Origin: Pancytospora philotis
Taxonomy: Eukaryota; Microsporidia
Assembly (NCBI GenBank): GCA_023647555.1
Contig: JALRLY010000238.1
Span: 1-36,197, forward strand
Length of the DNA: 36,197 bases
Direction: 5' to 3'
The position numbers were made by a program, and so were the translations under genes. The notes below the pieces were generated by a model. It saw nothing but the letters and a program-made list of their open reading frames with translations. It was not told the origin of the DNA and did no database searches. Of the stretch, positions 8,018 to 32,544 are shown piece by piece. The first letter of the stretch is position 1, and each line of letters begins with the position of its first letter.

Positions 8018-8074
8018 TAGTGCTATACTGGGCAGCCACTGCTCGCGAGCTTGCGCCCTTCGCGGCGGCCTGGA

Positions 8075-8121: not shown

Positions 8122-8189
8122 CAAGTTATTCTAGAATTGAATCTAACGCCGCGACGTCGAGCTTCACGAGAAATTTTAGCTCTCCCAGA

Positions 8190-12893: not shown

Positions 12894-13133
12894 CTAGAAA
12901 ACGGCGTCCCTTGCCTTGTCGGCGTCCATGAGGACCTTGAAAATGTGCCAGCAGTAGTCGGCGCCGCACGAGCAGTGGATCCGCGAATCGCCCCGGATCA
13001 GCTTCGCATCGGCCACCGTGTAGTACCTGATGCCGTGGAAGTAGTGCACGCGCAGCTCGCTCTGGTCCACCAGGCCCAGCTCGTCGCCTATGCAGAGATA
13101 CACCATCTCCCGCGTGACGCCCGAGAAGTCCAT
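12894..13133 (-). CDS. Small SWIM zinc-finger protein (SWS1/Shu2-like candidate)
   Basis: 79 residues from the ATG at 13133, which directly follows CCC; TTCAAAACC lies a little further upstream. The frame is open back to 13274, but that extension is Cys-rich and unlike the rest, so I prefer the shorter protein. The C-terminal half has HCSCGADYCWHIFKVL: Cys-x-Cys-x5-Cys-x-His, the SWIM-type zinc-binding signature. A minimal SWIM protein of this size resembles the zinc-binding core of SWS1/Shu2, which works with RAD51 paralogues to promote strand exchange. Other SWIM proteins exist, so the family assignment is tentative; the motif itself is clear. It is divergent from the Sel1-repeat gene. Confidence 0.65.
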   Translation of the reverse strand: MDFSGVTREMVYLCIGDELGLVDQSELRVHYFHGIRYYTVADAKLIRGDSRIHCSCGADYCWHIFKVLMDADKARDAVF

Positions 13134-13580
13134 GGGCTCGCTGCCAGCGGTTTTGAAGCGGACTTCTGAAGAAAAAGAGCGTGCAACGCTATAAAGAGTA
13201 CAATCAAGGATCAGGCAACAACAACTGGTTAGATAGTCACTAGCACCACATCTCACCGCCGAGTAACGCCGCACCCAGTCAACAAACAGCCTGAAACACG
13301 TGCAAGCAGCGCCACGCCATGCGTTTCATCGGTGCTGCTGCACAACTTTCATGGCCGGTGTTCAGAAGGATGCGATAGCTACCGCAAATGCAGACTCTAG
13401 CAGCGTTTTGAGACGCACGTCGGTCGCATGCAGCTTTGCCCAGCCTATAGAAGCCGCTGTAAGGCCATTAATCTCCATTGGTTACTTCGCCTGCCCGGCC
13501 AAACAACGCTGTCCTATTGGAGAGGCGCAGGCAGCGCGTAAAGGGGCACTCATTAAATACTCCTCGAACGAGCGCATCTT
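13134..13580. promoter_or_regulatory. Divergent promoter region between SWIM and Sel1-repeat genes
   Basis: 447 bp with no gene. Two CCAAT boxes on the minus strand (CATTGGTTA near 13479 and CTATTGGAG near 13514) lie about 60-100 nt before the Sel1-repeat start. An E-box core CACGTG occurs near 13298. Confidence 0.4.
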
Positions 13581-14753
13581 ATGATCAACTCGAAGTTCTT
13601 GACGCTGCCGGAGGAACTCATCGAGGATTACCACGGCGCGATACAAAACGACGACAACCACAGGCTGATGGCCTTCCTGCGCAAATACCTCAAGTACATC
13701 GAGTGCGACGACGGCGCGTACAACCGCTACTTCAGCCTCAAGGACCCGCTCGCGAGCCTCGAGACGACCAAGAGCTTCATGGACGACTTCAACAGCACGA
13801 TGAAGAGCTCGCTCAACTTCATGCTGAAGCACAGCAGCCAGCACGGGAACAAGGGCATCAAGGAGGGCGACGTGACCTGCTACCTCGGCGTGGGCAATGA
13901 GTTCGGCCTGTTCGGCATGCCGCTGAACAACAGCAACGCCTTCTTCTACTACACGGTCTCCGCCCAGCTGGGCAGCGCGCTCGGGACGTTCCGCCTCGCG
14001 CAGTGCTACGAGAAGGGCATCGGCACGTCCGTCAACCTCGCGAAGGCCGCCGACTTCTTCCGGTGCTCGGCCAAGCTCGGGCTCTGCGAGGGCATGCACG
14101 TGTACGGCACCGTGCTGGCCTACGGGCTGCTCGGCTGCAACGCCGACATGGAGCTCGGCAAGCACTTCCTCTCCGCGGCCTCGATCAACGCCACGAAGAC
14201 GTATCCGTACGCCATGTACGACATGGGCAAGTGGTACGAGAACAGCCGGAACATCGCGGAGATCGCGGTGGACGAGGGCTTCGCGTTCGACCTCTACTCG
14301 AAGGGCGCGCAGCTCAAGGAGCCGAACTGCATGCACCGCATCGCGCAGGCGTACGAGAAGGGCGATCTCGGGCGGAAGCCCAACGCGAACAAGGCGCTGG
14401 AGCTCTACAAGCTCGCCGCGCAGCACGGGCAGGTCGATGCGCAGCTCGCACTCTGCGAGCTCTACTTCAACGGCGTCGGCCGCAAGCGCAAGCGCTCGCC
14501 GGAGCAGTCGTACTACTGGGCGCTGCAGGCGGCGTCGAAGGGCAGCGGGCGCGGCGGCTACATCCTCGGCGAGTACGCGATGCGCGGCTTCGGCGTGCGC
14601 TGCGACATGCTGCTCGCGCTGTGGTGGTTCACGATTGCGGTGAACCTCGGCTACGAGGAGGCCGTCGACAAGCTGATCGAGCTCAAGCAGGAGATTAATA
14701 AGAAGGACGTGGGGCTCTACGTGCAGAACGGCTGCTGCAACTTTTTCTGCTGA
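13581..14753 (+). CDS. Sel1-repeat (SLR) protein, possible chitin-synthase activator type
   Basis: 390 residues. From about residue 130 on there are tandem Sel1-like helical repeats, with the A-x-x-x-G-x-(A/G)-x-A pattern and G-(I/V)-G turn: SAQLGSALGTFRLAQCYEKGIGTSVNLAKAADFF, then KGAQLKEPNCMHRIAQAYEKGD, KLAAQHGQVDAQLALCELYFNGVG and QAASKGSGRGGYILGEYAMRGFG. Sel1 proteins are scaffolds; in fungi Skt5/Chs4 uses them to activate chitin synthase, which would suit a chitin-walled spore former. Chs4 ends in a CaaX box, whereas this protein ends GCCNFFC, which is cysteine-rich but not a CaaX motif. ATG 13581 is the first in-frame start. Function is therefore a family-level guess; the repeats are certain. 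Confidence 0.8.
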   Translation: MINSKFLTLPEELIEDYHGAIQNDDNHRLMAFLRKYLKYIECDDGAYNRYFSLKDPLASLETTKSFMDDFNSTMKSSLNFMLKHSSQHGNKGIKEGDVTCYLGVGNEFGLFGMPLNNSNAFFYYTVSAQLGSALGTFRLAQCYEKGIGTSVNLAKAADFFRCSAKLGLCEGMHVYGTVLAYGLLGCNADMELGKHFLSAASINATKTYPYAMYDMGKWYENSRNIAEIAVDEGFAFDLYSKGAQLKEPNCMHRIAQAYEKGDLGRKPNANKALELYKLAAQHGQVDAQLALCELYFNGVGRKRKRSPEQSYYWALQAASKGSGRGGYILGEYAMRGFGVRCDMLLALWWFTIAVNLGYEEAVDKLIELKQEINKKDVGLYVQNGCCNFFC

Positions 14754-14785
14754 ATGCAGTTCTGTTAAATGCAGTCCCTTCTGCT

Positions 14786-14831
14786 GGAAATATATGAATA
14801 CAAATATGAATACGAATATGAATACGAATAG
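14786..14831 (+). repeat. 12-bp tandem repeat after the Sel1-repeat gene
   Basis: About 3.5 units of GAATAC(A/G)AATAT, immediately 3' of the Sel1-repeat stop codon and before an AATAAA near 14838. Confidence 0.7.
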
Positions 14832-14962
14832 AGTCACAATAAAGGAATTTATAAAGCGGTTTTGAGTGTAAGTATAACGGCGGCAGAGCTGCCATCCATG
14901 GTATACATGGTCTTTTAGCACATGCTTTAGAGTAACGCCTTGATTGCGAATGGATCTTGCTT

Positions 14963-16738
14963 TCACTCCTGCGCGTCGGGCTCCACGCGAAATACATGCC
15001 GGTAGAAGTCCTCGACGAAAAGATCGTCCGCGAAGAAGTACGTGTTCCGGTTCGAGTAGTGCGTAAGCAGCAGCTTCTTTGCATTCGCATAGTACGCAAC
15101 TTTCTCTGCCTCTTTCACAAGGCTGTGGTTCGTTTTCTCGGCGTTCTCCTCCTGGCCCTTAATAAACGTGGCCTCGTGCACCAGCACATCCACGTTCTGC
15201 GCAAGCGCCGCGAAGAGGACGGACGGACTTGTGTCGCCCGAGTAGGCGAACCTCGTGCCTTCCTTACTGTCATGCACAACGACTGACCCAGAATCGTGGC
15301 AGTGCTGCGCCCCGACGATCCGCAGCGCAAACTCGTCGACCTCGATCTCTATGGCGTACTTTTCCATGTCGGTCCCAGCGATCAGCTTTCTGACCTCCTC
15401 TTCCGGCCGGCCGGTCCAGGTGCGGCTCGCCCATCCGTTGTTATCGTCGTAGAACTGCTGCTCGAGCGCTTTGCAGTCCGTAGTCTCGATGTAGCGGTGG
15501 ATGAACTCACCGGAGGGCGAGCAGCCGTACTTCTCGATGAAGCTGCGGCAGCCCCGCGGCGCAACCACCGTGATGGGGCGCCGCAACTCCTGCAGCAAGT
15601 TCGTGGTGCCCAGAATGTGGTCGGCGTGCGAGTGGCTCAGATAAACCAGCTTGAGCTTGGCCAGCACGCCGAGGTCGCCGTACAGCCTGCGAATCTGCGC
15701 AGTGGTATCCTCGCCGCAGTCCAGCAGCATTGCAGAGTCGCGCGACTCGTAGAGAATGGACGACACGTTTCTGTGATTGGAGGGCGACGAGCAACCGGTG
15801 CCGAGAAAGACGATGCTCGGTGTAACCGCCTCGTTATGCACAGTGACAAACTCGGTCTTGGGGAGCTCCTCCGTGCGGTGAAGGACGAAGCCTGTTTGGT
15901 TATTGAACCGCAGTTCCGAGGCCCTGTCGAGCAGCACGCATCCGGACGGATCAGGCTGGGCCGTTTTCAGCGGCCAGCACGGCAGCAGATGATTGCTGTT
16001 CACCGCATTCATCTTTAGTTGCTTTTCGTACAGGTCCAGGTAGTCTACACCCGGCGAGTCCCTCACAAAGTAGACTGTGCTGTCCTTTGCCACCCCGCGG
16101 GCATAGGAAAGCGACTTGCGGGTGGTGCAAATGATCTGAGGGGCCGCCCAAAACTCGGCGGGGAGCTCCTTGAGGCACTTGTCGCTGAATATAATGGCCG
16201 TGGTGTCGGGCTGCACGGGCTCGTCCGCGTAGTCCCTCCTGTAATAGACCACGCCGTCAACCTCCAGCGTTTCGTTCTGCAGCAGCTGCTTGTACATCTT
16301 CTTCGGAATCGCCGGCGGCACGCGCTCGACGTGCAGCTTCCCGCGGCTCGGCGCAAACTTGACCAGGTAGTTGTCCACACCGTCGGCCCGGAACGAGCGG
16401 ACGTCAATATTCTCGTCGGCGTAGCTCTGCATCTGCTCGATGCACAGGGTCTGCTGCTTCGCGAAGCGGTGCACCATGGCCATGTCGACCGGCTCGGCCG
16501 CGACCACCTTCATCCCCTCCTTCGGCATATCGCCGAGCGAGAGGTACGCGCCGGCCAGCGCGGGCACGCAGCGCCTGTCCGGGAAGAACACAACATCGAT
16601 CGTGCCCATGCGGACACTTGCCTCGATGCAGTAGCGCTGGAAGCCCTCGAACATGTTGAATGCGTACTTCCTACCGGCCAAGGCCAGTATGATGGACTTG
16701 CCGCTCATGGTGCTTAAGAAGTTGAGCGATGCCAGCAT
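14963..16738 (-). CDS. TRZ1: Long-form tRNase Z (tRNA 3' endonuclease)
   Basis: 591 residues from the ATG at 16738, chosen because AAAATTTT ends 11 nt upstream; the frame extends upstream to 16843. tRNase Z cuts the 3' trailer from pre-tRNA in the nucleus and mitochondrion; the long form has two metallo-beta-lactamase halves, the C-terminal one catalytic. The catalytic half shows VFLGTGCSSPS, the metal motif LSHSHADHILG (about residues 363-373), AQHCHDSGS (about 485), YSGDT (about 499), HEATF (about 521) and LTHYSN (about 558). The N-terminal half lacks the metal motif, as expected. It is shorter than human ELAC2 and yeast Trz1 (over 800 aa), in line with genome compaction. Stop is TGA. Confidence 0.9.
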   Translation of the reverse strand: MLASLNFLSTMSGKSIILALAGRKYAFNMFEGFQRYCIEASVRMGTIDVVFFPDRRCVPALAGAYLSLGDMPKEGMKVVAAEPVDMAMVHRFAKQQTLCIEQMQSYADENIDVRSFRADGVDNYLVKFAPSRGKLHVERVPPAIPKKMYKQLLQNETLEVDGVVYYRRDYADEPVQPDTTAIIFSDKCLKELPAEFWAAPQIICTTRKSLSYARGVAKDSTVYFVRDSPGVDYLDLYEKQLKMNAVNSNHLLPCWPLKTAQPDPSGCVLLDRASELRFNNQTGFVLHRTEELPKTEFVTVHNEAVTPSIVFLGTGCSSPSNHRNVSSILYESRDSAMLLDCGEDTTAQIRRLYGDLGVLAKLKLVYLSHSHADHILGTTNLLQELRRPITVVAPRGCRSFIEKYGCSPSGEFIHRYIETTDCKALEQQFYDDNNGWASRTWTGRPEEEVRKLIAGTDMEKYAIEIEVDEFALRIVGAQHCHDSGSVVVHDSKEGTRFAYSGDTSPSVLFAALAQNVDVLVHEATFIKGQEENAEKTNHSLVKEAEKVAYYANAKKLLLTHYSNRNTYFFADDLFVEDFYRHVFRVEPDAQE

Positions 16739-17096
16739 GTCAGGGCTGCAAAATTTTGGACGAAGGCGTTTTGAGAACGGCGGACGAACTGGCGCTTCTT
16801 GCCACATAGCTGTGCTACAGCGGTCAACTGAAAAGGACTTCATACGCGATTACCACCAAAAACTAGCGTAGTGCAACACCGATGGAGCGCTCGTACAAAA
16901 TAGAATATTGTCGATCCCCTGGCTGTCCTCGAAAATACTGATCCATCTACACGCACAGCCCCTTCCGGAGCTGCCCCTTGGAAGCGCTCTGCCATTAGCC
17001 CGCCGCTGCCCCTTATCGCCGCAATTAAGGAGACCAAATCGCTGATTGGTCAGCCGATTAAGGGAAATTGATAACAGTAATCGCATCCCTCACGCC
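16739..17096. promoter_or_regulatory. Divergent promoter between tRNase Z and a membrane-protein gene
   Basis: AAAATTTT (16750-16757) serves the tRNase Z side. The right half has GCCCCTT three times (twice as GCTGCCCCTT), then the CCAAT 14-mer at 17041-17054 and GAAATTG near 17064, ahead of the ATG at 17097. No gene is seen. Confidence 0.45.
17041..17054 (+). promoter_or_regulatory. CCAAT-containing 14-mer upstream of the 17097 membrane-protein gene
   Basis: GCTGATTGGTCAGC, 42 nt before the start codon. It is identical, in sequence and orientation to the gene, to the element upstream of the four-pass gene that starts at 3721. Confidence 0.55.
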
Positions 17097-17678
17097 ATGG
17101 CTGAATCACTGAACCCGAGTAGGCAGGCTGAAAGAGCTGGCCAGAAGGCGTCCAGCATGATCAACAAGATCCGCGACTCGGAGTACGGCAAGATGATCCC
17201 GACCGAGCTGCAGGACGTAACGCTGCACATGATGATCAGATTCGCGCTCTTCGCGAAGCTGGGCTACTTCTTCCCCACGTATCTGATCGTCACGCTCACC
17301 TCGGAGCCCGAGACGGGCATCCTGCACCACATCGTCGCGTTCATCAAGTCGATCGCCGTGCTCGTCTGCCTGGCCGACTTCACGCTGCAGGCGGTCATCG
17401 GGCTGGCGAAGATCAAGATCCTCTACGCCGTCATGCTGCTCTCGATGGTCATCAAGAACGGCTTCCTAATCACCATCACGTTCTGCTACCTGGTGGACCA
17501 CTGGAGTTTCTTCTGTGCGATCATGTGGCTGCTCTACACCGCGGCCAACCTGGGAATCGACCTGGTCTTCGTCTACTACATCGGCGTGCGCTTCAACATG
17601 CTCACCGAGGACGAGGCGAACAACAACGTCGAGGATGTCAAGGAGGATGCCAAGGAGGCGGCCGAGGAGGCGGTTTGA
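17097..17678 (+). CDS. Four-pass membrane protein with acidic tail, unknown function
   Basis: 193 residues. A polar N-terminus (about 45 residues, Ser/Gln/Lys-rich) is followed by four closely spaced hydrophobic segments at about residues 47-67, 78-103, 108-133 and 136-163, then an acidic tail (LTEDEANNNVEDVKEDAKEAAEEAV). Short loops distinguish it from the tetraspanin-like protein at 3721, yet both share the same promoter 14-mer. I recognise no family. AATAAA (17678-17683) overlaps the last base of the TGA stop, so the 3' UTR must be minimal. The start is the first ATG after GAAATTG and CCAAT signals. Confidence 0.75.
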   Translation: MAESLNPSRQAERAGQKASSMINKIRDSEYGKMIPTELQDVTLHMMIRFALFAKLGYFFPTYLIVTLTSEPETGILHHIVAFIKSIAVLVCLADFTLQAVIGLAKIKILYAVMLLSMVIKNGFLITITFCYLVDHWSFFCAIMWLLYTAANLGIDLVFVYYIGVRFNMLTEDEANNNVEDVKEDAKEAAEEAV

Positions 17679-17767
17679 ATAAATCCACAATTCTTTTACA
17701 TTACTGTTGAATAGTGCTTTGCTTAATAGCGCATGAGCGTTACTTTACTAACTGATTCTGAAATCGC

Positions 17768-17774
17768 AAAATTT
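17768..17774 (+). promoter_or_regulatory. AAAATTT start-proximal signal of the MCM gene
   Basis: AAAATTT ends 10 nt before ATG 17785. It supports that start over the out-of-frame ATG at 17733, from which a long overlapping shadow frame runs. Confidence 0.6.
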
Positions 17775-17784
17775 CGGAGGCGCC

Positions 17785-19437
17785 ATGGACGGGCAGACGC
17801 AGCGGGCGGCGATCGACCTCATCGAGCTGTGCGAGAGGGACCCCAAGTACGCAAACGAGCTGATCGCGGGGCGCGCCCAGGCGATGGGCAAGGCCGAGCT
17901 GACGCGTGTGCCGGCGGCCGTCTACACGAGCAGGCCGCTCAACTCCTCCGACATCAACAGGCTCGTGTCCGTCCGCGGGAGCGTCATACGCATCTACGAG
18001 GTGCTCTTCAAGAACGTGCTGTGCGAGCAGGTCTGCCTGGTCTGCAACGCCTCCAACTTCGTGACGAGCGAGGCCAAGAGGCGCACGCACGACATCTGCA
18101 GCGCCTGCGGGAGCACCGGGCTGCGGACGAACCGCGACTTCCAGGGCGCCGTGACGAGCCAGAGCATCAGGATCCAGGACATCAGCAGCAGCGCGGCGAT
18201 GTCCGAGACCATCGAGGTCCTGCTCGAGGGCCCGCACGCGGGGCTCTTCGTGCCGGGCGACAAGGTCTTCGCGACCGGCGTGGTCACGCGCCGCTGGAAG
18301 CCGCTCAAGCCCGGGGAGCCGATGCTCTCCACGCTGGTGCTCGAGTGCCTGGCGATCTCCAAGGAGGACGAGGACGAGAGCAGGGACATCAAGCATCTGG
18401 TGGACGAGTACGCGGGCAAGGACACGTTCGCGCGCCGGCGCTTCCTGATGGACGCGTTCGCGCCGCACCTCGCGGGGCTGGCGCATGCCAAGCTCGGCAT
18501 CCTGCTTGCGCTCGCGAGCACGGGGAAGCCGGGCAGCGGCGAGACGCGGAAGAGCATCCACGTCCTTCTCGTTGGCGACCCCGGGACCGGCAAGACGCAT
18601 CTGCTGAAGCTCGCCGCGAAGCTCGTGCTCCCGGCGGTCTCCGCCAACGGGATCGGCACGTCCGACGCGGGCCTCACGAGCTGCGCCGTGCGCCACGGCA
18701 AGGAGTGGTCGATCGAGGGCGGCGCGCTGGCGCTCGCGGACACGGGCCTCTGCTGCATCGACGAGTTCCACAAGCTCAAGGTCAACGAGAAGAGCGGGCT
18801 GCTCGAGGCGATGGAGCAGCAGACGATTTCCATCGCGAAGGCCGGCATCGTCACCGCGATCAACTCGCGCTGCTCCGTCCTCGCGGCGGCCTCGACGCGC
18901 AACCTCTACAATCCGAGGAAGACCGTCTCCGAGAACCTCGGGCTCAGCACGCCGCTCGTCAGCCGCTTCGATCTGATCTTCGGGCTGTTCGACACGCACA
19001 ACACGGTGGCGGACGACGCACTGGTCGATGCGATCCTCGCGCGCGGGGAGAGCCAGAAGCTGCACGAGTCGGTCAGATGGCCCGCGGCCGCGCTGCGCTC
19101 CTTCCTCATGCAGAGCCGCCGCCGGCAGAACCGGATGGGCGAGGAGCAGGCGCGCACGGTGCTGGGTTACTACACGGCGAAGCGCAAGATGGACGGGCAC
19201 AACGAGTTCAACACGATCCGCATGCTGGAGAGCCTTGTGCGGCTCGCAGAGGCGCACTCGAAGATCATGAACCACGACTGCGTCGCCGAGGAGGACGTGT
19301 ACATAGCAATTATTCTGATGGAGCTCGGCGCGGGCACTTCCTCCACTGTGCAGATCGAAATTGAGCGGGTGTTCATCGATCAGGACTGTTTCTCTAGGAC
19401 TGTAGATGCGCTAAAAAGCGCATATGGGCTCACGTGA
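17785..19437 (+). CDS. MCM9: MCM9-like AAA+ helicase
   Basis: 550 residues. An MCM N-terminal OB region holds a C4 zinc finger (C84-x2-C87 ... C105-x2-C108), followed by the AAA+ core: Walker A GDPGTGKT (about 264-271), Walker B LCCIDEF (about 323-329) and arginine finger SRFDL (about 393). Blocks favour MCM9 over MCM2-7: GIGTSDAGLT, LADTGLCCIDEF, EAMEQQTISIAKAGIV, TPLVSRFDLIF and TIRMLESLVRLAEAH. TVSENL before the arginine finger is MCM8-like, so an MCM8/9 ambiguity remains. MCM9 with MCM8 unwinds DNA during homologous recombination and crosslink repair. The usual Asn-Pro after the second beta-hairpin is replaced (AAASTRNLYNP). It lacks a long C-terminal extension. AATAAA (19477-19482) lies 40 nt beyond the TGA stop. 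Confidence 0.8.
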   Translation: MDGQTQRAAIDLIELCERDPKYANELIAGRAQAMGKAELTRVPAAVYTSRPLNSSDINRLVSVRGSVIRIYEVLFKNVLCEQVCLVCNASNFVTSEAKRRTHDICSACGSTGLRTNRDFQGAVTSQSIRIQDISSSAAMSETIEVLLEGPHAGLFVPGDKVFATGVVTRRWKPLKPGEPMLSTLVLECLAISKEDEDESRDIKHLVDEYAGKDTFARRRFLMDAFAPHLAGLAHAKLGILLALASTGKPGSGETRKSIHVLLVGDPGTGKTHLLKLAAKLVLPAVSANGIGTSDAGLTSCAVRHGKEWSIEGGALALADTGLCCIDEFHKLKVNEKSGLLEAMEQQTISIAKAGIVTAINSRCSVLAAASTRNLYNPRKTVSENLGLSTPLVSRFDLIFGLFDTHNTVADDALVDAILARGESQKLHESVRWPAAALRSFLMQSRRRQNRMGEEQARTVLGYYTAKRKMDGHNEFNTIRMLESLVRLAEAHSKIMNHDCVAEEDVYIAIILMELGAGTSSTVQIEIERVFIDQDCFSRTVDALKSAYGLT

Positions 19438-19588
19438 GGTTGTCCGAGTTGTGCACTGATGATATCCTTGGCTATGAATAAAACTGTTGCTTTATTTCCT
19501 TTTTGTAAATACCTGTTCACCAACTATTAGATTGCTTTCCGCGCTGCAACACACAGATCGTATCAAAAACTCCTCAAATATTACACAT

Positions 19589-22086: not shown

Positions 22087-22193
22087 GCCGGTAAGTAAAT
22101 AGAAATGACGATTTGCTGCCAGCTCGTTTTGCCACCGGCCCCCACAAAAGCTGCTGAATTTTGCGGCTGTTAGCAAAAGATTTGCAACCACCC

Positions 22194-22544
22194 ATGGATC
22201 AGAAGCTGCTGCCGGACGGGAAGGCCCAGAAGGCGTACGCCCTGCTCAGCAAGCTGCGCGACACGAACAACGTCAAAGTCGGCTACAACGAGGTCATCAA
22301 GTCGCTGAACAACAGCTCCGCGATGCTCGTCATCGTGGCCGAGGACACCACGCCGTACAGCATCGTGGCGCCGCTCCCGGTGCTGTGCGAGCAGAAGGGC
22401 GTGGACATCGTGTACGTGTCGTCCAAGGCTGCGCTGGGGAAGGCCTGCAAGCTGCAGGTGGGCGTCATTGCATGTGCCATCTTCGCCGACCGCAACGACG
22501 ACTCCTCGTCCATCCAGACCAGGATCCGCGACATGCTTAATTGA
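22194..22544 (+). CDS. SNU13: SNU13 (15.5K), L7Ae-family k-turn protein
   Basis: 116 residues from ATG 22194, with GAATTTT (22156-22162) upstream. L7Ae/L30e-fold proteins bind kink-turn RNA; SNU13 binds U4 snRNA in the U4/U6.U5 tri-snRNP and box C/D snoRNAs including U3. Visible landmarks: GYNEVIKSLNNSSAMLVIVAEDT (RNA-contact helix and strand), then PLPVLCEQKGVDIVYVSSKAALGKAC, and the SNU13-like end SSIQTRIRDML. NHP2 and ribosomal L7Ae are the alternatives, but the short N-terminus and C-terminal SSI-x-T-x-I favour SNU13. With PWP2 it serves snoRNP/rRNA processing, and it hints that a spliceosome is retained. AATAAA (22550-22555) lies 5 nt after the stop. Confidence 0.85.
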   Translation: MDQKLLPDGKAQKAYALLSKLRDTNNVKVGYNEVIKSLNNSSAMLVIVAEDTTPYSIVAPLPVLCEQKGVDIVYVSSKAALGKACKLQVGVIACAIFADRNDDSSSIQTRIRDMLN

Positions 22545-23046
22545 GTGGCAATAAATAGTGATAGCCTTTTATTTTCTTGCGCAGCTTTGCTATTGAAACA
22601 GGGCGGTGGTATGCTTCTGATAGCTGCGGTGGTGTATAGCTTTGAGCTAATGTTACAGCTTTATTTTTTTGAATCTAGCCCATACTAAGTAGTCTCTAGA
22701 CCTGGACTTACTTCATTCCTTTTGCACTAAGCCAACCTCTTTGCAATTTCCATAATCTACTTACAAATCCCATAATCTACTTACAAATCCCATAGACAGA
22801 TAGCTGTGCATGTCAATAGGCAACGCAGAAGAAACCGCCTTGAGAGGAAGGCAGTGCAAAATTTTGCAAAAGCCTTGTTAGGAGCACCAGCACTGTCACT
22901 CCGCACCGCCACCGCCGCAACGCCCCGCCGCATGCTTTGTTTCATGTTTGCCCAATGGCCTGCGCGCGCGTGCGCCTCCCCGCAGGCCCGGCCGCCGCGC
23001 TGATTTGTCGGATTTAACGAATAAGAAAAAGTCCCCAAAGCGTTGT
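22545..23046. other. Spacer upstream of the CSC1-type channel
   Basis: No gene supported. The left part is AT-rich. It contains a 20-bp direct tandem repeat (22751-22790), AAAATTTT (22859-22866) at an unusual distance of about 180 nt from the next start, and a CCAAT (GCCCAATGG near 22951). Confidence 0.4.
22751..22790 (+). repeat. 20-bp perfect tandem duplication
   Basis: Two identical 20-bp units beginning CATAATCTAC, plus a 4-nt partial third, in the spacer before the channel gene. Confidence 0.85.
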
Positions 23047-25776
23047 ATGACTGACGTGAACAAAGAGGGAGTCAAGGTGATGAACAAGCTGCTCAAGGGG
23101 AGCGATTTCAAGAAGGCCGACACGGAGATCATCTCGAACGGGATGCTGCAGGCCGGCGGCGCGTTTGCGCTGATGCTGGTGTACCTCGTGTGCCGGCGGC
23201 GCGCGCCGTGGCTGTACTACCCGAACGTGCGCAACACGCCGAGCCACCCGGCGTACCGGTGCGGCGACGGCGTCTTCGCGTGGGTCCGCCCGCTGATCGG
23301 GATGGACGACTCGCAGCTGCTGGGCCTGGTCGGGCTCGACGGCTTCATGTTCCTGCAGACGATCAAGCTGCTGTACCGCATCTGCCTGCTGCTCTCGCTG
23401 ACGGTGGTGCCTGCGCTCTGCTACTGCTTCTACGTGTCGAAGGCCGGGACCGACGGGCTGTTCTCGCGGCTTTCGATCCACGAGATCCGCGAGCACCGGC
23501 TGTTCCTGCTGATCACCGTGCTTGTGTACATTGTGACGATGCTCGTGTACTACTTCATCTTCATATACTACAAGCGGTTTGTTGCGCTGCGCCAGCTCTA
23601 CCTCACGAGCCCGGCGACGATGACCTCGATTGCCAAGCTCAAGGAGCTGACGCGCAGCCTGCCGCCCGACACGAGCGCCGTTGACTACGTGGATGTCAAG
23701 TCGCGCACTGTGCTGATGAACCGGCTGCCTGCTGGGCTTGCGACCGACCGGGACGGTCTGCGCTACATGCGCGGGATCGGGATTGGCGAGGTCGAGAGTG
23801 TGGTGCTTGTGCGCGACACCATGGAGCTGCAGCGGCTGTACGGCCTGCGCAATACGGCTGTGCAGGACATCGAGAAGGAGACCGACCGGGTGTTCGAGCG
23901 GATGTGCAAGTACTACAAGACGGAGAACGCGCTCATCCGCTGCTCCTTCGGCGATGACCAGGCTGATCTGGTGCATGCGGCGATGGAGCAGCCTGAGCGG
24001 AAACTCGCTGTCGATGAGAAGGCCGCGCTGCTGAACCGCTTCGTGGAGCATGCCGATGCGTTTATGCAGCGCGTGGGCGAGCACAGCAGCCTGAAGCAGC
24101 GGATTGCCAAGTTCAAGGAGCTGCAGGACGCGATTGACGAGGAGAAGCGGCACCTGGAGAATGTGTACAAGACGGAGGAGGAGCCGGGGGAGGCCGACGC
24201 CGAGCACCCGCCCACCGCTGAGAGCCTGCGCGACACCAATGTGCTCGACAAGTCCGTGGACACCGTCGTGTCGCTCGACGACTCGCTGTTTGTGCCTGCG
24301 AATCTGCGCAAGGATGTTTCTTTCTTCTCGCTGGACCAGCTCGTCCACTGGCGCAAGAACCGCGCGATGTTCACGCTCGATCTGCCCATCGGCAAGAAAA
24401 AGGCGTTCGTAACGTTCAAGGACAAGAAGACCACCGGCATTGTGATGCAGAGCAAAATTGGCTCGCGCGTCTTTGCCTGCGATGCCCTCACCGCCCCCGC
24501 GCCGTACGACATCATCTGGTCGAACATCGTAAAGAACGAGGCCTTCTGCTACATCATGAAGATCTTCTCGTCCATCTGCTTCTTCCTCATGTACGGGCTC
24601 TTCTACTATTTCTTCGCTATGATCACCACGTTCCTTGACATTGACAGCGACTCGCCGAATGTGGTAATCCGCTTTATTGTGCAGCACGAGTTCATCCACT
24701 CGCTCTACCGCGGTTTCCTCGTTCCGTTCGTGTACAATATTCTGCTCTTCTTTATTCCGATCATAATGGCTGCCCTTCTCAACACGCAGGGCATCTACGC
24801 CTACTCCATGTTCCAGATAGAGCTTATGAACGCGTTCTCGATCTTCCTGTTCTTCAACGGCTTCCTTGCGATCTTCTGTGCCAAGGTGTTCTTCACCGGC
24901 ATCCCCGATGTGTACCACCAGCGCTCGACCGTCAAGGAGGTCATCGCCAGCCTCGGGACCTCCATCGTGGAGTCCTCCATCTTCTTCTTCAACGCGATCA
25001 TCCAGCGCCTCTGCATCGGATCGGCCATCGTGTTCCTAAAGCCGGGCCCATTCATTTTTAACTTCATGATCGCGCCGTTCATCCACAAGAACCGGCGCCA
25101 GGCCAAGGAGATCGAGTTCGCGCCGCCGGTGGATCTTGGTAACGCCATTCCGAACATCCTCCTCATATTCCCGATGGTGATCGCGTACTCTGCAATCTCG
25201 CCGGTCATCCTCGTGCTTGGCTACCTCTTCTACACCGTTTCCTACTTCACATACAAGAACGAGCTCGTGTACGCCGCGAAGAACGAGTGCGAGTCAGGCG
25301 GCATCTTCTGGAAGTACTCCATCCGCTTCATCGTGTACTCCATCTGCATCTTCCACCTCGCGACGGCCATCAAGATTTTCGTAGAGGGCTATGCGGGCGT
25401 TGCGCTCGGCCTCTTCCCGCTCATCCTCATCAACTACCTCTACTACACGGGCCTCAAGTCGATGTTCGAGCGCAGCTGCGACTACCCGCCGATCGCGAAG
25501 GTCGAGGAGGAGTACCTCGACGACTTTGCGCAGCAGGCGCTGCAGGACCGCTCCGAGCTGCTGGCCAAGTGGGTGATGAACGTGGAGAATGCGGACGAGG
25601 ACACGCTTGAGGTCTCGTCCATCCAGGCGGAGGCGGTGCAGTCCAAGGGCTCCTCGCTCTACCGGGACCCGGCGATGAGCAGCAGCCTGTCCACCTTCAT
25701 ATTCCCGCAGCACTTCTACAGCGTGCTTTCCTACATTGCCGACAAGGACAAGGACGATCTTTACGCGCTCAAATAG
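23047..25776 (+). CDS. CSC1/OSCA/TMEM63-type cation channel
   Basis: 909 residues from ATG 23047 (a second in-frame ATG lies at 23080). The order matches the osmosensitive, calcium-permeable CSC1/OSCA family: an early membrane helix (about residues 31-45) followed by RAPWLYYPNVR; then GLDGFMFLQTIKLLYRICLLL and a third helix (LFLLITVLVYIVTMLVYYFIFIY). A long cytosolic RNA-binding-like domain follows, with VLMNRLPAGL and a Lys/Glu-rich helical insert. The channel core starts at PAPYDIIWSNI and has about seven to eight hydrophobic segments, including MYGLFYYFFAMITTFL and YNILLFFIPIIMAALL. The C-terminal tail is acidic. Such channels open on membrane tension or osmotic stress, which is plausible for spore germination, but that link is inference. 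TAG stop; AATAAA at 25792-25797. Confidence 0.85.
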   Translation: MTDVNKEGVKVMNKLLKGSDFKKADTEIISNGMLQAGGAFALMLVYLVCRRRAPWLYYPNVRNTPSHPAYRCGDGVFAWVRPLIGMDDSQLLGLVGLDGFMFLQTIKLLYRICLLLSLTVVPALCYCFYVSKAGTDGLFSRLSIHEIREHRLFLLITVLVYIVTMLVYYFIFIYYKRFVALRQLYLTSPATMTSIAKLKELTRSLPPDTSAVDYVDVKSRTVLMNRLPAGLATDRDGLRYMRGIGIGEVESVVLVRDTMELQRLYGLRNTAVQDIEKETDRVFERMCKYYKTENALIRCSFGDDQADLVHAAMEQPERKLAVDEKAALLNRFVEHADAFMQRVGEHSSLKQRIAKFKELQDAIDEEKRHLENVYKTEEEPGEADAEHPPTAESLRDTNVLDKSVDTVVSLDDSLFVPANLRKDVSFFSLDQLVHWRKNRAMFTLDLPIGKKKAFVTFKDKKTTGIVMQSKIGSRVFACDALTAPAPYDIIWSNIVKNEAFCYIMKIFSSICFFLMYGLFYYFFAMITTFLDIDSDSPNVVIRFIVQHEFIHSLYRGFLVPFVYNILLFFIPIIMAALLNTQGIYAYSMFQIELMNAFSIFLFFNGFLAIFCAKVFFTGIPDVYHQRSTVKEVIASLGTSIVESSIFFFNAIIQRLCIGSAIVFLKPGPFIFNFMIAPFIHKNRRQAKEIEFAPPVDLGNAIPNILLIFPMVIAYSAISPVILVLGYLFYTVSYFTYKNELVYAAKNECESGGIFWKYSIRFIVYSICIFHLATAIKIFVEGYAGVALGLFPLILINYLYYTGLKSMFERSCDYPPIAKVEEEYLDDFAQQALQDRSELLAKWVMNVENADEDTLEVSSIQAEAVQSKGSSLYRDPAMSSSLSTFIFPQHFYSVLSYIADKDKDDLYALK

Positions 25777-26060
25777 TTGATCACCAGCAATAATAAAATT
25801 TTAAACTTAAAGGAGTTTGCTATTATTGCAATTATATATTCTGTATGGTAGTATTTAATCGAGTTGCAGTAACTAAAAAAAGTTATACTTGAGAGGTAAA
25901 ACTAGCAATGTACCTTCACTACACTATTTAGTACTGCATGTTTGAGGAGTAGTGATTAAGCGTAAAATAAGTCAGAGAGACTGAAACATTTCCATTCCGT
26001 AACTATCGCTGCGATTCAGCAGATACATTGCAACACGCTTCTTAGCAGACGCTGGCATCC

Positions 26061-28187
26061 ATGGCTACCGCCCCGCTGTCCCCATCGCACAATTTTTCTT
26101 TCGAGCTGAAGAATTATCCAGACACCGATAAAATTCACAAGCCCCAGTTCATGGCGGCGGAGAACGTGTGCTCAAGCTCCAGTCCCAGTCAGGAGTCGCT
26201 CGCGCCGGCCGCGGAGCCATCGAGCTGCATGTACGACCTCGAGAGCACCGACATCTCGTACACCGAGTCGGGCACAGACCTGGACGGGCTGCTGAGCTCC
26301 ACAGCCGAGCGGCTTGGCGGGTGCGCGGATGAGGAGCTCGGCTCAGGTGAGGAGGAGCTCTGCGCCAGCGAAGAGATAGATTTTGATGTCGGCTTCTCCG
26401 AGGCCGCGCAGCTGCTGGAGCGCGGCAGCAGGCTGTACGGTGAGTCATCCGCGACGAGCACGTGTGCTGAAGGCGCGCACATGGAGAGCTTCGACCGCGT
26501 GGACAGCCCGCGGAGCAGCTACGAGCGCGTCGGTGCCGAGCCGTCGCCTGCCAGCGGCGCCGACAATCCGGGAGAAGCCGGCAACCACCTAGAGCGTGAG
26601 TTCCCATTCCTGCACCCGAGCATCATCACCGACTCGAACGCTTCTGTGCTTGCCAACCTGAACTCTGCGGGCAGCAGCTTCTTGCGGGCCGAGGCCGGCG
26701 CAATGTCCGGCTTTGCGAGCGCGAGCAACAAGCGGATATCGATAGACAGGAGCAAGCTCGAGTCGTGCATGGGCATACTGTACAAAAACATGCCTGAGAT
26801 GCTCGGCGCGCACGATAGCGCAGCTTTGAACAGCGACGCCGATGCGAGCCTAGACGGACATGCGCATAAAAGGCCAACAGAGGACTCTGCGATGGACGTG
26901 GGCTTTAGCAGCGCTGGTGAGAATGCCAGCAACAAGGTCAAGGACGGACCGTCGCCGTGCGCCGGGTTCGTGACCGGGAACAACAAGCGGATCAAGCTCT
27001 CCGCCGAGCAATACAACAAGGCACGGGAGCTGCTCCAGCTAGGCTCTGAGGGCGATGAGGAAACGAATAAAGCGCTGCCTGTGATAGAGGAAGCGAATAA
27101 AGCGCTGCCTGTGATAGAGGAAGCGAATAAAGCGCTGCCTGTGATAGAGGAAGCAGAAAAGGAAATAGCTACGCCCCGTGATACCAAACTTCCTCCCCCT
27201 TGCGGTGCTGAGCAGACACCCCAGCCCGACAGCCTTCCAAGCAGGCTCGTGCGCAGCTACAACAATCCGCAGACCGGCCACGCAGCAGTGGAGCTCCGCG
27301 AAAAGATACAGATGGCTGAGATTTTCAGGAACGTGTGCACGTATTTCAAAAAGGAGGAGGAAGACTGGATTGCTATACAGTTCAAGTGGGCCTGGCTGCA
27401 CTTCGCCGTCAACCCGCCGAGCAGCGCAGGCAGCCTCGAGGCGGAGATCATCGAGAACATGAACATGCGGCGTATGAAGGAGCACTCGGTCCTGCGGCGT
27501 ATCGCCGAGTTCGACGATGTGCCGGGGCGGTACATGGTGCTGGGGATACTCAGGCTGGACGAGGAGAGCGTGGAGCTCTACGACGGGTGGTACTCTGTGC
27601 GCGCGCTGATCGACGCGCGGACGTACGCCATGCTGCGGGCAAAGCGGGCTGGTCTCGGGAGCCGTCTGCATGTGTTCGGCGCGCAGCGGCTGACCGAGGA
27701 GGCCACAAGCATCTTCGACCTGCACGCCCCGCTGCTGCGCCTCTCCTACAACGGCGTGAAGATGTGCCACGAGCCGTGCTGTCTGGGCTACCGCAAGAAG
27801 GTGGCCTTTCTGAACAGCATTGTCGATATCCACCCCGACGGCGGGCCCATCAGCGCGATCATCGTGCGGGTCGTCCGCGTGATTGAAACAAAGTACATCA
27901 TCACCGCCGGGCACTACAAGAAAATCGTAGACGATCCGGAGCGCGGCCTCGAGGAGGTGCACGAGCTCGCCGAGAAGGCCGGGCGCACGGACCTGAATGT
28001 GCGGACCAACAGATTCACGCGGCTGGTGGTGGCGGATGCCTCGGCCGAGTGCCTTGTCACCTGGTGGTGCTCGCCGGACCGTGTGGTCGCGGGCGAGCGT
28101 TACAAGATGATTTATCTGAAGCCTACGCACGACCGGCTCGGGCTGCAGCTGTCTACGAACAACAAAAGTTACATAGAAAAGCTATGA
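26061..28187 (+). CDS. BRCA2: Minimal BRCA2 homologue with two BRC repeats
   Basis: 708 residues from ATG 26061; ATG 26151 (M31), 10 nt after an AAAATTC, is an alternative. BRCA2 loads RAD51 on single-stranded DNA. The N-terminal 400 residues are acidic and disordered, with two BRC-type repeats: GFASASNKRISI (F218-x-x-A221) and GFVTGNNKRIKL (F303-x-x-G306), each followed by a helix. Three exact NKALPVIEEA repeats (336-365) follow. The DNA-binding domain has a helical part (about 419-480, EEEDWIAIQFKWAWLHF), OB1 (about 491-640, ELYDGWYSVRALIDARTYAM, LLRLSYNGVK, DGGPISAIIVRVVRV) and an OB2 core (653-708, VTWWCSPDRVVAGERYKMIYL). It ends at the point where OB2 ends in human BRCA2. The tower domain and OB3 are missing. 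AATAAA at 28263. Confidence 0.85.
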   Translation: MATAPLSPSHNFSFELKNYPDTDKIHKPQFMAAENVCSSSSPSQESLAPAAEPSSCMYDLESTDISYTESGTDLDGLLSSTAERLGGCADEELGSGEEELCASEEIDFDVGFSEAAQLLERGSRLYGESSATSTCAEGAHMESFDRVDSPRSSYERVGAEPSPASGADNPGEAGNHLEREFPFLHPSIITDSNASVLANLNSAGSSFLRAEAGAMSGFASASNKRISIDRSKLESCMGILYKNMPEMLGAHDSAALNSDADASLDGHAHKRPTEDSAMDVGFSSAGENASNKVKDGPSPCAGFVTGNNKRIKLSAEQYNKARELLQLGSEGDEETNKALPVIEEANKALPVIEEANKALPVIEEAEKEIATPRDTKLPPPCGAEQTPQPDSLPSRLVRSYNNPQTGHAAVELREKIQMAEIFRNVCTYFKKEEEDWIAIQFKWAWLHFAVNPPSSAGSLEAEIIENMNMRRMKEHSVLRRIAEFDDVPGRYMVLGILRLDEESVELYDGWYSVRALIDARTYAMLRAKRAGLGSRLHVFGAQRLTEEATSIFDLHAPLLRLSYNGVKMCHEPCCLGYRKKVAFLNSIVDIHPDGGPISAIIVRVVRVIETKYIITAGHYKKIVDDPERGLEEVHELAEKAGRTDLNVRTNRFTRLVVADASAECLVTWWCSPDRVVAGERYKMIYLKPTHDRLGLQLSTNNKSYIEKL
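27061..27150 (+). repeat. Three-unit 30-bp in-frame repeat in BRCA2
   Basis: Three copies of a 30-bp unit, nearly identical, each encoding NKALPVIEEA and each containing AATAAA (27066, 27096 and 27126). The repeat lies between the second BRC repeat and the helical domain. Confidence 0.9.
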
Positions 28188-28317
28188 ATGAGGGTCGGAG
28201 TATCGCTGTTCATAGAAATGGCGTGCGGTACCTTCAGGCTGCAAAACTGTGTCTGCAGAAACAATAAAACTACTACGTAACTATTTATTCTGTTTTCTAT
28301 TTATTGGCATCTAGGCA

Positions 28318-28351
28318 AAACTTTCATCTCTCATAAACTTTCATCTCTCAT
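28318..28351 (+). repeat. 17-bp perfect tandem duplication
   Basis: Two identical 17-bp units (AAACTTTCATCTCTCAT) in the tail-to-tail spacer between BRCA2 and the secreted protein gene on the minus strand. Confidence 0.85.
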
Positions 28352-28407
28352 AAAGCAAACAACCACACAAAAACTAGAATAAAAAAGAGCATCTTCACAC
28401 AGAATAT

Positions 28408-29385
28408 TTATTCGACCTTAAGAACGGTTTTAGACAGCAGCGTAATGAGGTTGGCCTTGCTGGAGTTGCGCTCGAGCATGTTCTTGATGAAGCGGCAGTA
28501 GCTCTTGACGGCTGAGTTGTACTTGTCGTCGCACTTGGGCAGGGAGATGCAGATAATATAGTAGCTGATGAGTTTGAGCTTGACCTCCTCCGCGAACAGC
28601 GCCTTGATGTTGGCGCAGCCCTTGTAGGAGCCGCAGTGCTTGGCGTAGCACTTCTCCCAGATCGCGATGAGCGCGCGGATGTCCTCGCGCACGAACATGC
28701 GCATGGAGACAAGCACGGTGTGGTGGAAGCCGATGCTGTATGTGCAGCACTTGCGGATGTCGATGATGTCGAGCGGCAGGCAGTACGTGTAGGCAGTCGT
28801 GGTGCGGTGTCTGATGATCTTGGCGGAGCGCGAGACGCAGAAGAACTCGAAGGTGTTGCCGCACTTCACGAAGAAGGTGATGTAGCTGATGCTGAGGTGG
28901 CTGGGCACGCTGGCGCAGTGCTTCTGGTTGAAGGTGTTGATGATGGTGACGAACTCCTCCTCGCGGCCGTAGCAGGCGTCAAAGATGCTGACGATGATTC
29001 TGTAGCAGCGCACGTAGTCTGGGACGGCGCAGTGCAGCGCGTCGTAGTACTCGTTGTAGACCTCGGCCGGCACGAAGTAGATGGCCTGGCGGAAGTACTC
29101 GGCGAGCTTGGCGTTCTTGTTGGACTCGCTGCCGGCGCCGAACGTGGCGGGGCGCAGCGGCGTGAAGCCGGCGTTCTTGCAGGTCTGGTCGAGCAGGCAG
29201 TTGATCGAGCTGTAGATCGCCTTCAGCGTGATGCAGCTGGGCGTGGAGTTGAACTCCGCGCAGCAGAACTTGTTCTGCACCTTGCAGCAGGAGCCGAACA
29301 TATTGTCCTTGACGAAGGTCAGGGAGTCGCCGGCAGCTGCGGAGCCGAACAGCGCGAAGGAGGCCAGGCCGAGATACGCAAACAT
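28408..29385 (-). CDS. Cysteine-rich secreted protein, possible spore-surface protein
   Basis: 325 residues starting with a clear signal peptide (MFAYLGLASFALFGSAAAG, cleavage after AAA or AAG). The mature chain has 22 cysteines, including pairs (SCC, FCC, KCC), which suggests disulfide-linked, extracellular protein. Two potential N-glycosylation sites (NST, NSS) are visible. No membrane anchor is seen. Codons are strongly C/G-ending and a TATA box sits about 22 nt before the ATG, so strong expression is likely. Secreted cysteine-rich proteins of spore wall or polar tube would fit a microsporidian, but I see no match to a named one. The minus-strand AATAAA (28407-28412) overlaps the TAA stop. 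Confidence 0.75.
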   Translation of the reverse strand: MFAYLGLASFALFGSAAAGDSLTFVKDNMFGSCCKVQNKFCCAEFNSTPSCITLKAIYSSINCLLDQTCKNAGFTPLRPATFGAGSESNKNAKLAEYFRQAIYFVPAEVYNEYYDALHCAVPDYVRCYRIIVSIFDACYGREEEFVTIINTFNQKHCASVPSHLSISYITFFVKCGNTFEFFCVSRSAKIIRHRTTTAYTYCLPLDIIDIRKCCTYSIGFHHTVLVSMRMFVREDIRALIAIWEKCYAKHCGSYKGCANIKALFAEEVKLKLISYYIICISLPKCDDKYNSAVKSYCRFIKNMLERNSSKANLITLLSKTVLKVE

Positions 29386-29736
29386 TATGGGGGCGCGGGC
29401 GCCGAGCTTTTATAGCTTGGATTTCATTAAGAAACATATCACTTATTAAGGTTTGAATCAGTCGATTAAAATTTAATATGCAATTACGGCGTGGCAACAA
29501 ACAAAGGCGGTGCGCACAAAAGCGGCACGCGCCGGTCTGCAGATAAATAATATAAAATAATGTGGTGTGCGGGTGCCTGATCGGTTACTAAGCAGTAGGT
29601 AATCACATCGCAGAAGCGCTATTTATTAAACTCATGTACTTTATTTATCGATCTGCGCCTAGCATCTGGGCTGTCAGTAGCAGATGGCGCTAGGAAAAGC
29701 TGGAAATACAATTGCAACAGAAGCCAAGCTGCTACA
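29386..29736. other. Spacer upstream of the 28408-29385 secreted protein gene
   Basis: The left end holds this gene's TATA box. The remainder is AT-rich with several TTTATT/AATAAA motifs that may end the next gene on the minus strand. No ORF is supported. Confidence 0.4.
29406..29415 (-). promoter_or_regulatory. TATA box of the 28408-29385 secreted protein gene
   Basis: GCTATAAAAG on the minus strand, about 20-30 nt before the ATG at 29385, flanked by GC-rich sequence. The gene has no AAATTTT motif beside its start. Confidence 0.6.
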
Positions 29737-30600
29737 TCAGACCCTTTCGCTTTTATTATTCGAAAGCAGCGCGGTCGCCAGTCGGGCGCACTGCTTCTCG
29801 CCGAGCGCGCGGATGTTGCGGCCGCTGCTGTCCGAAACAGACAGGCGCGCCACGGCCTCGCGCGCGCTGCGCAGCGCACGCCGCAGCTCCTGCAGCGTCG
29901 GATAGACGGCGCAGATGGACGTCGCGGCCTGCGCGCTGATCCCCGGGACCGCCCGGAGTATCGTGAGGTAGGTGTCCTGCTTCCCCTCGCAGGTGCGCAC
30001 CTTCGGCACGTAGCACTGCTGCTTCCCGAGCAGCACCGCGATGTTCTTGATCGCCCGGTGCAGCTCCGCCGCGTCCTCCACGTACGCGATGTTGCGGCCC
30101 GTGGAGATCTGGTACTCCAGAAACTCGCGCCGCCGCCCCCGGTACGCGCACGGGCCCTCGTAGAACTCGCCGCTCGCCGCGCTGCTCGCGTACGCCTTCC
30201 GCTGGCTGCTGCGCGCGCCATGCCTAAACCGCTCGCGCCCGGTGATGAGCACCAGCCGGCTGCCCAGCTCGTCGGGGAAGGCGAACGCGCCGTAGTCGGA
30301 CACGTGCACGCGGTACAGCGCCTCGCCCGTATCTGCATCGACGAAGGCCAGGCAGTCGCTCTCTGTGTATCTGTAGATGAAGTTGACGGCCTCGACGCCC
30401 TGGAACAGCGGCGCGATTGAGCGCGGAACCTCGATCGTGTAGGGGAGGAAAGCGGCATCCACTACGTCCGGCGCTGCTGTGCGCGTTTTGTTACTCGCTG
30501 CTTGCTCTGGCGGCGCGCTGCGGGCCGTGCTCACGCCGCCGAGTGGCTCGATGAAGGAGAGCGACGTGTCCGTCCCGGCGTCCTCGGGCTCCCTGGTCAT
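29737..30600 (-). CDS. XPF/MUS81-family protein, EME1-like
   Basis: 287 residues from ATG 30600, with AAAATTT 14-20 nt upstream. The C-terminus has tandem helix-hairpin-helix features: DTYLTILRAVPGISAQAATSICAVYPTLQELRRAL (about 209-243), then GRNIRALGEKQCARLATAL. Before it, EFLEYQISTGRNIAYVEDAAELHRAIKNIAVLLGKQ fits the end of an inactive XPF-type nuclease domain; no ERKxxxD catalytic motif is seen. This pattern is that of non-catalytic partners. EME1/Mms4, which pairs with MUS81 to cut recombination intermediates and stalled forks, fits best; ERCC1 and FAAP24 are alternatives. The first 45 residues are disordered. Family-level confidence is moderate. Confidence 0.55.
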   Translation of the reverse strand: MTREPEDAGTDTSLSFIEPLGGVSTARSAPPEQAASNKTRTAAPDVVDAAFLPYTIEVPRSIAPLFQGVEAVNFIYRYTESDCLAFVDADTGEALYRVHVSDYGAFAFPDELGSRLVLITGRERFRHGARSSQRKAYASSAASGEFYEGPCAYRGRRREFLEYQISTGRNIAYVEDAAELHRAIKNIAVLLGKQQCYVPKVRTCEGKQDTYLTILRAVPGISAQAATSICAVYPTLQELRRALRSAREAVARLSVSDSSGRNIRALGEKQCARLATALLSNNKSERV

Positions 30601-32382: not shown

Positions 32383-32544
32383 ATGTTCCATTTCGTACTT
32401 GCGCTTTGTTTGTGTTTCTTATTGGTGCTTTGGCTGGTTTGCGGGTGCAAGTAAATCGGCCTCTGGTTTTGTGATCTCTGACCGTCTGGGCAGATGATCG
32501 CTCACGCTTTCAGAGTTGATATGAGGTGCGGGCAAAATTTACCC

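What the first reader, a model, noticed from the sequence alone, without database searches (positions are those of the whole stretch)
12894..30600. Four recombination/crosslink-repair proteins in an otherwise stripped-down genome
Within about 18 kb lie a BRCA2 homologue, an MCM9-like helicase, a minimal SWIM protein of SWS1/Shu2 type and an EME1-like XPF-family protein. In well-studied eukaryotes all four act around RAD51-mediated recombination and fork or crosslink repair. Compact parasite genomes, microsporidia in particular, usually retain few such factors. They are not co-transcribed, so this may be chance proximity, but joint retention suggests a functioning BRCA2-MCM9-RAD51 axis.
Basis: partly seen in the sequence, partly recalled or inferred. 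Interest (0 to 1): 0.75.

Follow-up and report, generated by a model that had tools for sequence, protein, structure and literature searches.

The report
Recombination-repair genes in a microsporidian parasite
A tiny-genome parasite keeps a working-looking set of DNA recombination genes, including a cut-down BRCA2 and an MCM9 helicase subunit whose usual partner MCM8 could not be found, which would make it a natural test of what MCM9 does alone.

Summary
The window is contig C26 of a 3.68 Mb microsporidian genome related to Pancytospora. Three of the four named proteins hold up. 26061-28187 (+) is a short BRCA2-type protein (OB1 E 5e-13; a BRC repeat just under cut-off, over it in the homologue). 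17785-19437 (+) is MCM9. 29737-30600 (-) has an XPF/MUS81-type fold nearest EME1/EME2 and no nuclease motif (low-confidence model). 12894-13133 (-) is a convincing 79-aa gene with a SWIM motif but lacks the alanine of the SWS1/Shu2 signature, so I do not file it there. RAD51, RAD52, MUS81, XPF-type, ERCC1 and SPO11-type genes are elsewhere in the genome. That supports a recombination core. The 'BRCA2-MCM9-RAD51 axis' is only partly supported: seven MCMs were found, MCM2-7 plus MCM9, no MCM8; HROB was not found (no valid control). Microsporidian-type MCM9s have another residue at the sensor-1 asparagine in 41 of 60 sequences. The clustering is best read as chance: both strands, unrelated genes between; MCM9 and the EME1-like gene are probably linked in Pancytospora too. 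New points: MCM9 without MCM8, and an EME1 candidate in a group where Mms4/EME1 was reported missing.

The parts
26061..28187 (+). Short BRCA2-type RAD51 mediator, 708 aa
   Evidence: PF09103 E 4.9e-13; BRCA2 crystal-structure chains E 2e-4 to 7e-4 over residues 502-613; metagenomic homologue P0122, E 1.5e-140
26958..27035 (+). BRC repeat (residues 300-325; F-V-T-G at the FxxA position)
   Evidence: PF00634 18.9 bits in the whole protein and 19.1 bits in the piece, cut-off 20.3; the aligned repeat of P0122 scores 23.2
26709..26786 (+). Possible second BRC-like motif (FASASNKRISI, from residue 218)
   Evidence: Seen by eye and by pattern; not recognised by Pfam on its own and not present as such in P0122
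27486..27794 (+). BRCA2 OB1 domain
   Evidence: Only PF09103 match in the genome, 52.8 bits
17785..19437 (+). MCM9, 550 aa, short N-terminus and no long C-terminal extension
18892..18894 (+). Sensor-1 codon of MCM9: serine in place of the usual asparagine (residue 370)
   Evidence: Alignment of 120 listed MCM9 relatives and six own MCMs
29737..30600 (-). EME1/EME2-like non-catalytic XPF-family subunit, 287 aa
30004..30453 (-). Pseudo-nuclease domain of the EME1-like protein (residues 50-199)
   Evidence: VIA model range 50..199; no ERK motif in either homologue
29755..29976 (-). C-terminal helix-hairpin-helix region (residues 209-282)
12894..13133 (-). 79-aa SWIM-motif protein, family not settled
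   Evidence: PF04434 14.4 bits, sub-threshold; coding score rank 1 of 52 small ORFs
12936..12974 (-). SWIM motif CSCGADYCWHIFK (C54, C56, C61, H63; K66 where SWS1/Shu2 has A)
   Evidence: Sequence; signature CXC...Xn...CXHXXA from PMC6316741

Best explanation
This is a pared-down RAD51 recombination system of a microsporidian, four of whose genes (counting the SWIM gene, whose role is open) lie near one another largely by chance. Proposed working: the short BRCA2 binds RAD51 through its BRC motif and single-stranded DNA through OB folds, and so loads RAD51 (RAD52 is there as a second mediator). Joint molecules are cut by MUS81 paired with the EME1-like protein, while XPF-ERCC1 serves excision and flap cutting. 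MCM9 acts without MCM8, either as a homo-oligomeric ring or as an ATP-binding accessory subunit. Shown: the genes, the family assignments of BRCA2 OB1 and MCM9, the fold of the EME1-like protein at model level, and the presence of RAD51, RAD52, MUS81, XPF-type, ERCC1 and SPO11-type genes. Inferred: the interactions, the loading step and the MCM9 role.
For: BRCA2 OB1 and BRC evidence. One RAD51-family gene, 427 bits, with GFTTATEYH. RAD52 164 bits. MUS81 by phmmer, E 3e-9, with a D...ERK...D motif. A second ERCC4-domain gene, taken as XPF, with an ERK motif. ERCC1/Rad10 elsewhere, 109.7 bits, so the EME1-like protein is not the missing ERCC1. SPO11-type match 40.6 bits, cut-off 26. EME1-like fold and absence of ERK in it and in its homologue. 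MCM9: scores; quick tree of 84 rows in which 60 microsporidian-type MCM9s form one group (SH-aLRT 100) and 18 of the other 60 listed MCM9s another (96), with the six own MCM2-7 apart. No MCM8: 7 MCM P-loops, all 7 candidates scored, six of them assigned to MCM2-7, MCM6 by its MCM6_C domain (24.6 bits, cut-off 23.7), the other five by phmmer. Assembly looks complete: 8 CCT matches and 17 proteasome matches, 14 if the three pairs of equal score are copies; the expected 8 and 14 are recalled.
Confidence: 0.72

Rival explanations
1. The four genes form a selected recombination gene cluster that is kept together and co-regulated.
For: Proximity is somewhat unlikely by chance if only 20-30 such genes exist (0.002-0.012). 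Pancytospora MCM9 and EME1-like proteins are both listed on contigs of exactly 54,831 bases, so probably the same one.
Against: The genes are on both strands and are separated by other genes: Sel1 repeats, a metallo-beta-lactamase protein, DUF5090, a protein with only a sub-threshold PUF match, DUF5100, L7Ae, an RSN1-type channel and an unrecognised gene. RAD51, MUS81, RAD52, XPF-type, ERCC1 and SPO11-type genes are on other contigs. Gene order is often conserved in these genomes (recalled), so linkage in one relative says little.
Confidence: 0.1
2. MCM8 exists in this organism but is missing from the assembly or too divergent to be seen, so MCM9 works in the usual MCM8-9 helicase.
For: Mcm8 and Mcm9 are tabulated for E. 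cuniculi (PMC2667178 Table 1). The assembly is in 83 contigs. HROB and DSS1 searches were blank but uninformative.
Against: The same search found seven MCM P-loops at 216-335 bits. Marker families look complete: 8 CCT matches and 14 distinct proteasome matches (expected numbers recalled).
Confidence: 0.22
3. The 287-aa protein is another non-catalytic XPF-family subunit (FAAP24-, ERCC1- or Zip2/Spo16-like) and not the partner of MUS81.
Confidence: 0.2
4. The 79-aa SWIM protein is a true SWS1/Shu2 orthologue whose alanine has been substituted.
For: A free-standing small SWIM protein is typical of SWS1/Shu2 (recalled); the CxC...CxH part is intact.
Against: HxxA is HIFK here; no RAD51 paralogue was found by PF08423 (one match); no homologue search was run for it.
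Confidence: 0.35

Closest known systems
BRCA2 family (BRCA2, fungal Brh2)
   Same: BRC repeat followed by BRCA2 OB1 in one protein; RAD51 with GFTTA present
   Different: 708 aa; one Pfam-recognised BRC repeat, with FxTG; no recognised helical, tower or OB3 domain; the protein ends 130 residues after OB1
MCM9 of the MCM8-MCM9-HROB helicase
   Same: Closest to MCM9 by score and tree; zinc cysteines, Walker A/B and arginine finger kept
   Different: No MCM8 found; HROB not found; shorter N-terminus; 550 aa against 1143 in the MCM9 chain 8s91_D; sensor-1 Asn to Ser
EME1/EME2/Mms4, partner of MUS81
   Same: Predicted pseudo-nuclease fold plus HhH region, no ERK motif, MUS81 in the genome
   Different: 287 aa, so little N-terminal region; sequence similarity below cut-off; only one homologue found (Pancytospora)
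SWS1/Shu2 SWIM proteins
   Same: Small free-standing protein with CxC...CxH
   Different: K instead of A in HxxA; no RAD51 paralogue partner seen

Membership tests
BRCA2 | BRCA2-specific OB1 domain | tested here: met
   49.5 bits, cut-off 25.6
BRCA2 | BRC repeat(s) that bind RAD51 | tested here: inconclusive
   18.9-19.1 bits under the 20.3 cut-off in the window; the aligned repeat in P0122 is over it at 23.2. Binding not testable
BRCA2 | Helical domain, tower, OB3 | tested here: inconclusive
   Not reported by hmmscan at E up to 1; reduction as in other short BRCA2s possible (recalled)
BRCA2 | DSS1 partner in the genome | tested here: inconclusive
   No match, but nothing rang in the controls
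MCM9 | MCM AAA+ core nearest to MCM9 | tested here: met
   255 bits MCM9 against 153 MCM8; tree (no MCM8 rows in it)
MCM9 | Zinc cysteines, Walker A Lys, Walker B, Arg finger | tested here: met
   All present in the window protein; sensor-1 Asn is Ser
MCM8-MCM9-HROB helicase system | MCM8 present | tested here: not met
   7 MCM P-loops = MCM2-7 + MCM9, as far as the assembly goes
MCM8-MCM9-HROB helicase system | HROB present | tested here: inconclusive
   No match; no control genome over the cut-off
EME1/MMS4 | XPF-type fold with HhH region but without ERKxxxD | tested here: met
   with a low-confidence model
EME1/MMS4 | Sequence match to the EME1-MUS81_C profile | tested here: inconclusive
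   12.5 bits, cut-off 27.4; none in the Pancytospora homologue
EME1/MMS4 | MUS81 in the genome and physical pairing | tested here: inconclusive
   MUS81 present with ERK motif; pairing not testable
SWS1/Shu2 | CxC...Xn...CxHxxA | tested here: not met
   CxC...CxH met, A replaced by K
SWS1/Shu2 | RAD51 paralogue partner | tested here: inconclusive
   One PF08423 match only; divergent paralogues could be missed

The most novel reading that the evidence does not exclude
This lineage carries an MCM9 that works without MCM8, the mirror image of Drosophila's MCM8 without MCM9. Across microsporidia MCM9 is drifting from helicase motor to ATP-binding accessory factor: it is shortened at both ends and has repeatedly changed the sensor-1 asparagine, while keeping Walker A, the arginine finger and the zinc site.
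Probability: 0.35. Interest if true: 0.75.

Novelty: new variant of a known kind. Interest (0 to 1): 0.5.

Why it matters
In the one survey seen here Mcm8 and Mcm9 were present or absent together in all sampled taxa except Drosophila, which has Mcm8 alone (PMC2667178). A genome with MCM9 alone would separate MCM9's own role from the MCM8-9 helicase. An EME1 candidate matters because Mms4 was listed as missing in E. cuniculi while Mus81 was present (PMC1851970 Table 1), so the partner may simply be too divergent for sequence searches. A 708-aa BRCA2 narrows what is needed to load RAD51.

Tried and rejected
Rejected: operon or co-transcription (both strands, intervening genes). Rejected: the 287-aa protein as ERCC1 (ERCC1 found elsewhere). 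Rejected: the MCM as one of MCM2-7 (each has its own gene). Rejected: the SWIM ORF as a chance reading frame.

Led nowhere: PDB sequence searches of the EME1-like and SWIM proteins (best E 0.43 and 1.2). BRCA2 structure model unusable, so no fold search was run on it. The homologue search for BRCA2 returned only itself and P0122 out of 7991 candidates scored, and only those sharing most words were scored, so absence in Pancytospora is not shown. The SWIM family search of the own genome missed even the window's gene, so it says nothing about other copies. Sensor 1: serine, threonine or aspartate can serve as sensor 1 in some AAA+ proteins (PMC5039278 passages), so for the window's Ser loss of activity is open; Gly (13 of 60), Arg (2) and Cys (1) are harder to excuse. 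FANCD2 search unanswered twice.

Papers: PMC2667178 passages and section 5; PMC1851970, PMC12134460, PMC9053307, PMC11061109, PMC13174016, PMC11675949, PMC2866331, PMC5039278, PMC6316741 and PMC6180034 passages only; others only as search listings. PMC11061109 lists EME1 and BRCA2 among the proteins it surveyed in fungi; whether it scored them in Microsporidia I did not see. PMC12134460 surveyed 432 repair proteins with microsporidia among its genomes; its main text has no BRCA2, MCM9 or EME1, and its supplements were not seen. The searches microsporidia+MCM9, microsporidia+BRCA2, BRCA2+Encephalitozoon, two of microsporidia/MUS81/EME1 (10 of 786 listed), and MCM8+MCM9+lost+HROB+evolution (10 of 12 listed) showed me no title or abstract start describing MCM9 without MCM8 in microsporidia or a microsporidian EME1; subscription journals are mostly not in that library.
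Full report
Setting. The window is contig C26 of a 3,680,843-base genome in 83 contigs. Its MCM9 is 61% identical to that of the microsporidian Pancytospora epiphaga and 49% to those of Enteropsectra breve and Vittaforma corneae, so the organism is a microsporidian of that group. G+C of 2-kb steps along the window is 49-64%.

BRCA2. 26061-28187 (+), 708 aa. Pfam finds the BRCA2 OB1 domain at residues 476-578 (E 4.9e-13) and a BRC repeat at 300-325 just under cut-off. BRCA2 crystal chains align at 502-613 (E 2e-4 to 7e-4). A metagenomic homologue, P0122 (42% identity over 96%), has OB1 at 50.3 bits and, at the aligned place, a BRC repeat over cut-off at 23.2 bits. Both repeats read F-x-T-G where the textbook motif is FxxA (recalled); a second, FASA-bearing stretch from residue 218 is seen only in the window protein and is not recognised by Pfam. 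The genome's one RAD51-family match keeps GFTTATEYH, the motif that BRC repeats imitate (recalled). RAD52 is present. DSS1 was not found, without a valid control.

MCM9. 17785-19437 (+), 550 aa. phmmer against solved structures puts MCM9 first (255 and 252 bits), with MCM8 at 153 and 152. Named microsporidian relatives include Pancytospora, Vittaforma, Enteropsectra, Encephalitozoon, Ordospora, Nosema, Vairimorpha, Nucleospora, Hamiltosporidium, Astathelohania and Dictyocoela; sources call some of them MCM9, some plain Mcm ATPase and two (P0034, P0055) Mcm7. In a quick tree of 84 rows (60 microsporidian-type, 18 of 60 other listed MCM9s, 6 own MCM2-7) the first 60 form one group with support 100 and the other MCM9s another with 96. 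MCM8 rows were not available, and the MCM2-7 branches are long. The genome search gave seven MCM P-loops, all seven candidates scored. Six are MCM2 (L005), MCM3 (L006), MCM4 (L003), MCM5 (L004), MCM6 (L002, MCM6_C domain just over cut-off) and MCM7 (L007). The seventh is the window gene. So no MCM8 was found in the assembly. Marker families argue against a gap: eight CCT matches, one of them partial, and 17 proteasome matches that are 14 if the three pairs of equal score are copies; that 8 and 14 are the full numbers is recalled.

MCM9 anatomy. The zinc cysteines are kept in 60 of 60 microsporidian-type rows, as are the Walker A lysine and the arginine finger; Walker B aspartate in 59 and glutamate in 54 of 60. 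The sensor-1 asparagine is kept in 18 of 60 (19 S, 13 G, 6 T, 2 R, 1 C, 1 gap) against 60 of 60 other MCM9s, needing at least 7 changes on the tree. Median residues before the OB-domain motif are 62 (range 21-150) against 124 (range 0-162), so the N-terminal part is about half as long at the median. The window protein stops at 550 aa, while the MCM9 chain 8s91_D has 1143 and aligns only to its residue 602. [quoted passage not shown]

SWIM protein. 12894-13133 (-), 79 aa. Coding score 0.638, first of 52 ORFs of 60-110 aa, with GC3 0.91. CxC...CxH is present, but the SWS1/Shu2 signature CXC...Xn...CXHXXA (PMC6316741) is not met. I leave its family open.

Neighbourhood and chance. The four genes are on both strands with eight other genes of over 115 aa between that I count as real. 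Under random scatter some four of 20, 30, 40 or 50 such genes fall within 17.7 kb with probability 0.0019, 0.0115, 0.033 or 0.079; I do not know the true number, and the cluster was picked after the fact. MCM9 and the EME1-like protein of Pancytospora are both listed on 54,831-base contigs, probably the same, which fits conserved gene order.

Verdict. Observation mostly right, interpretation partly right. The set is a reduced RAD51 system with a SPO11-type gene but only one RAD51-family match. The surprising parts are MCM9 without MCM8 and a findable EME1 candidate.

Noticed in passing
window 4860-11495 (+): Four tandem paralogues of about 400-470 aa (37-51% identity to one another), with secreted-looking N-termini by eye; the two scanned (first and fourth) match no Pfam family over cut-off. 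The third (8007-9197) is cut short by a stop, with similar sequence continuing after it.
   Followed up: partly
window 32494-33804 and 34478-35977 (+): A second pair of paralogues (40% identity) with no Pfam match; genes 28408-29385 and 31252-32382 also match nothing.
   Followed up: partly
G000 contigs C59, C39, C47: Three proteasome matches occur twice within one contig with identical scores, which suggests duplicated or uncollapsed assembly segments.
   Followed up: no
P0030: A protein labelled Biomphalaria pfeifferi (snail) sits inside the microsporidian MCM9 clade next to P0033, probably parasite sequence in a host assembly.
   Followed up: partly
window 17785-19437 and P0001-P0060: Repeated change of the sensor-1 asparagine in microsporidian-type MCM9s (41 of 60 with another residue, 1 gap), at least 7 changes on the tree.
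   Followed up: yes
G000:C70:5733-5906 (L013): SPO11-type TP6A_N match, although only one RAD51-family match and no separate DMC1 was found.
   Followed up: partly
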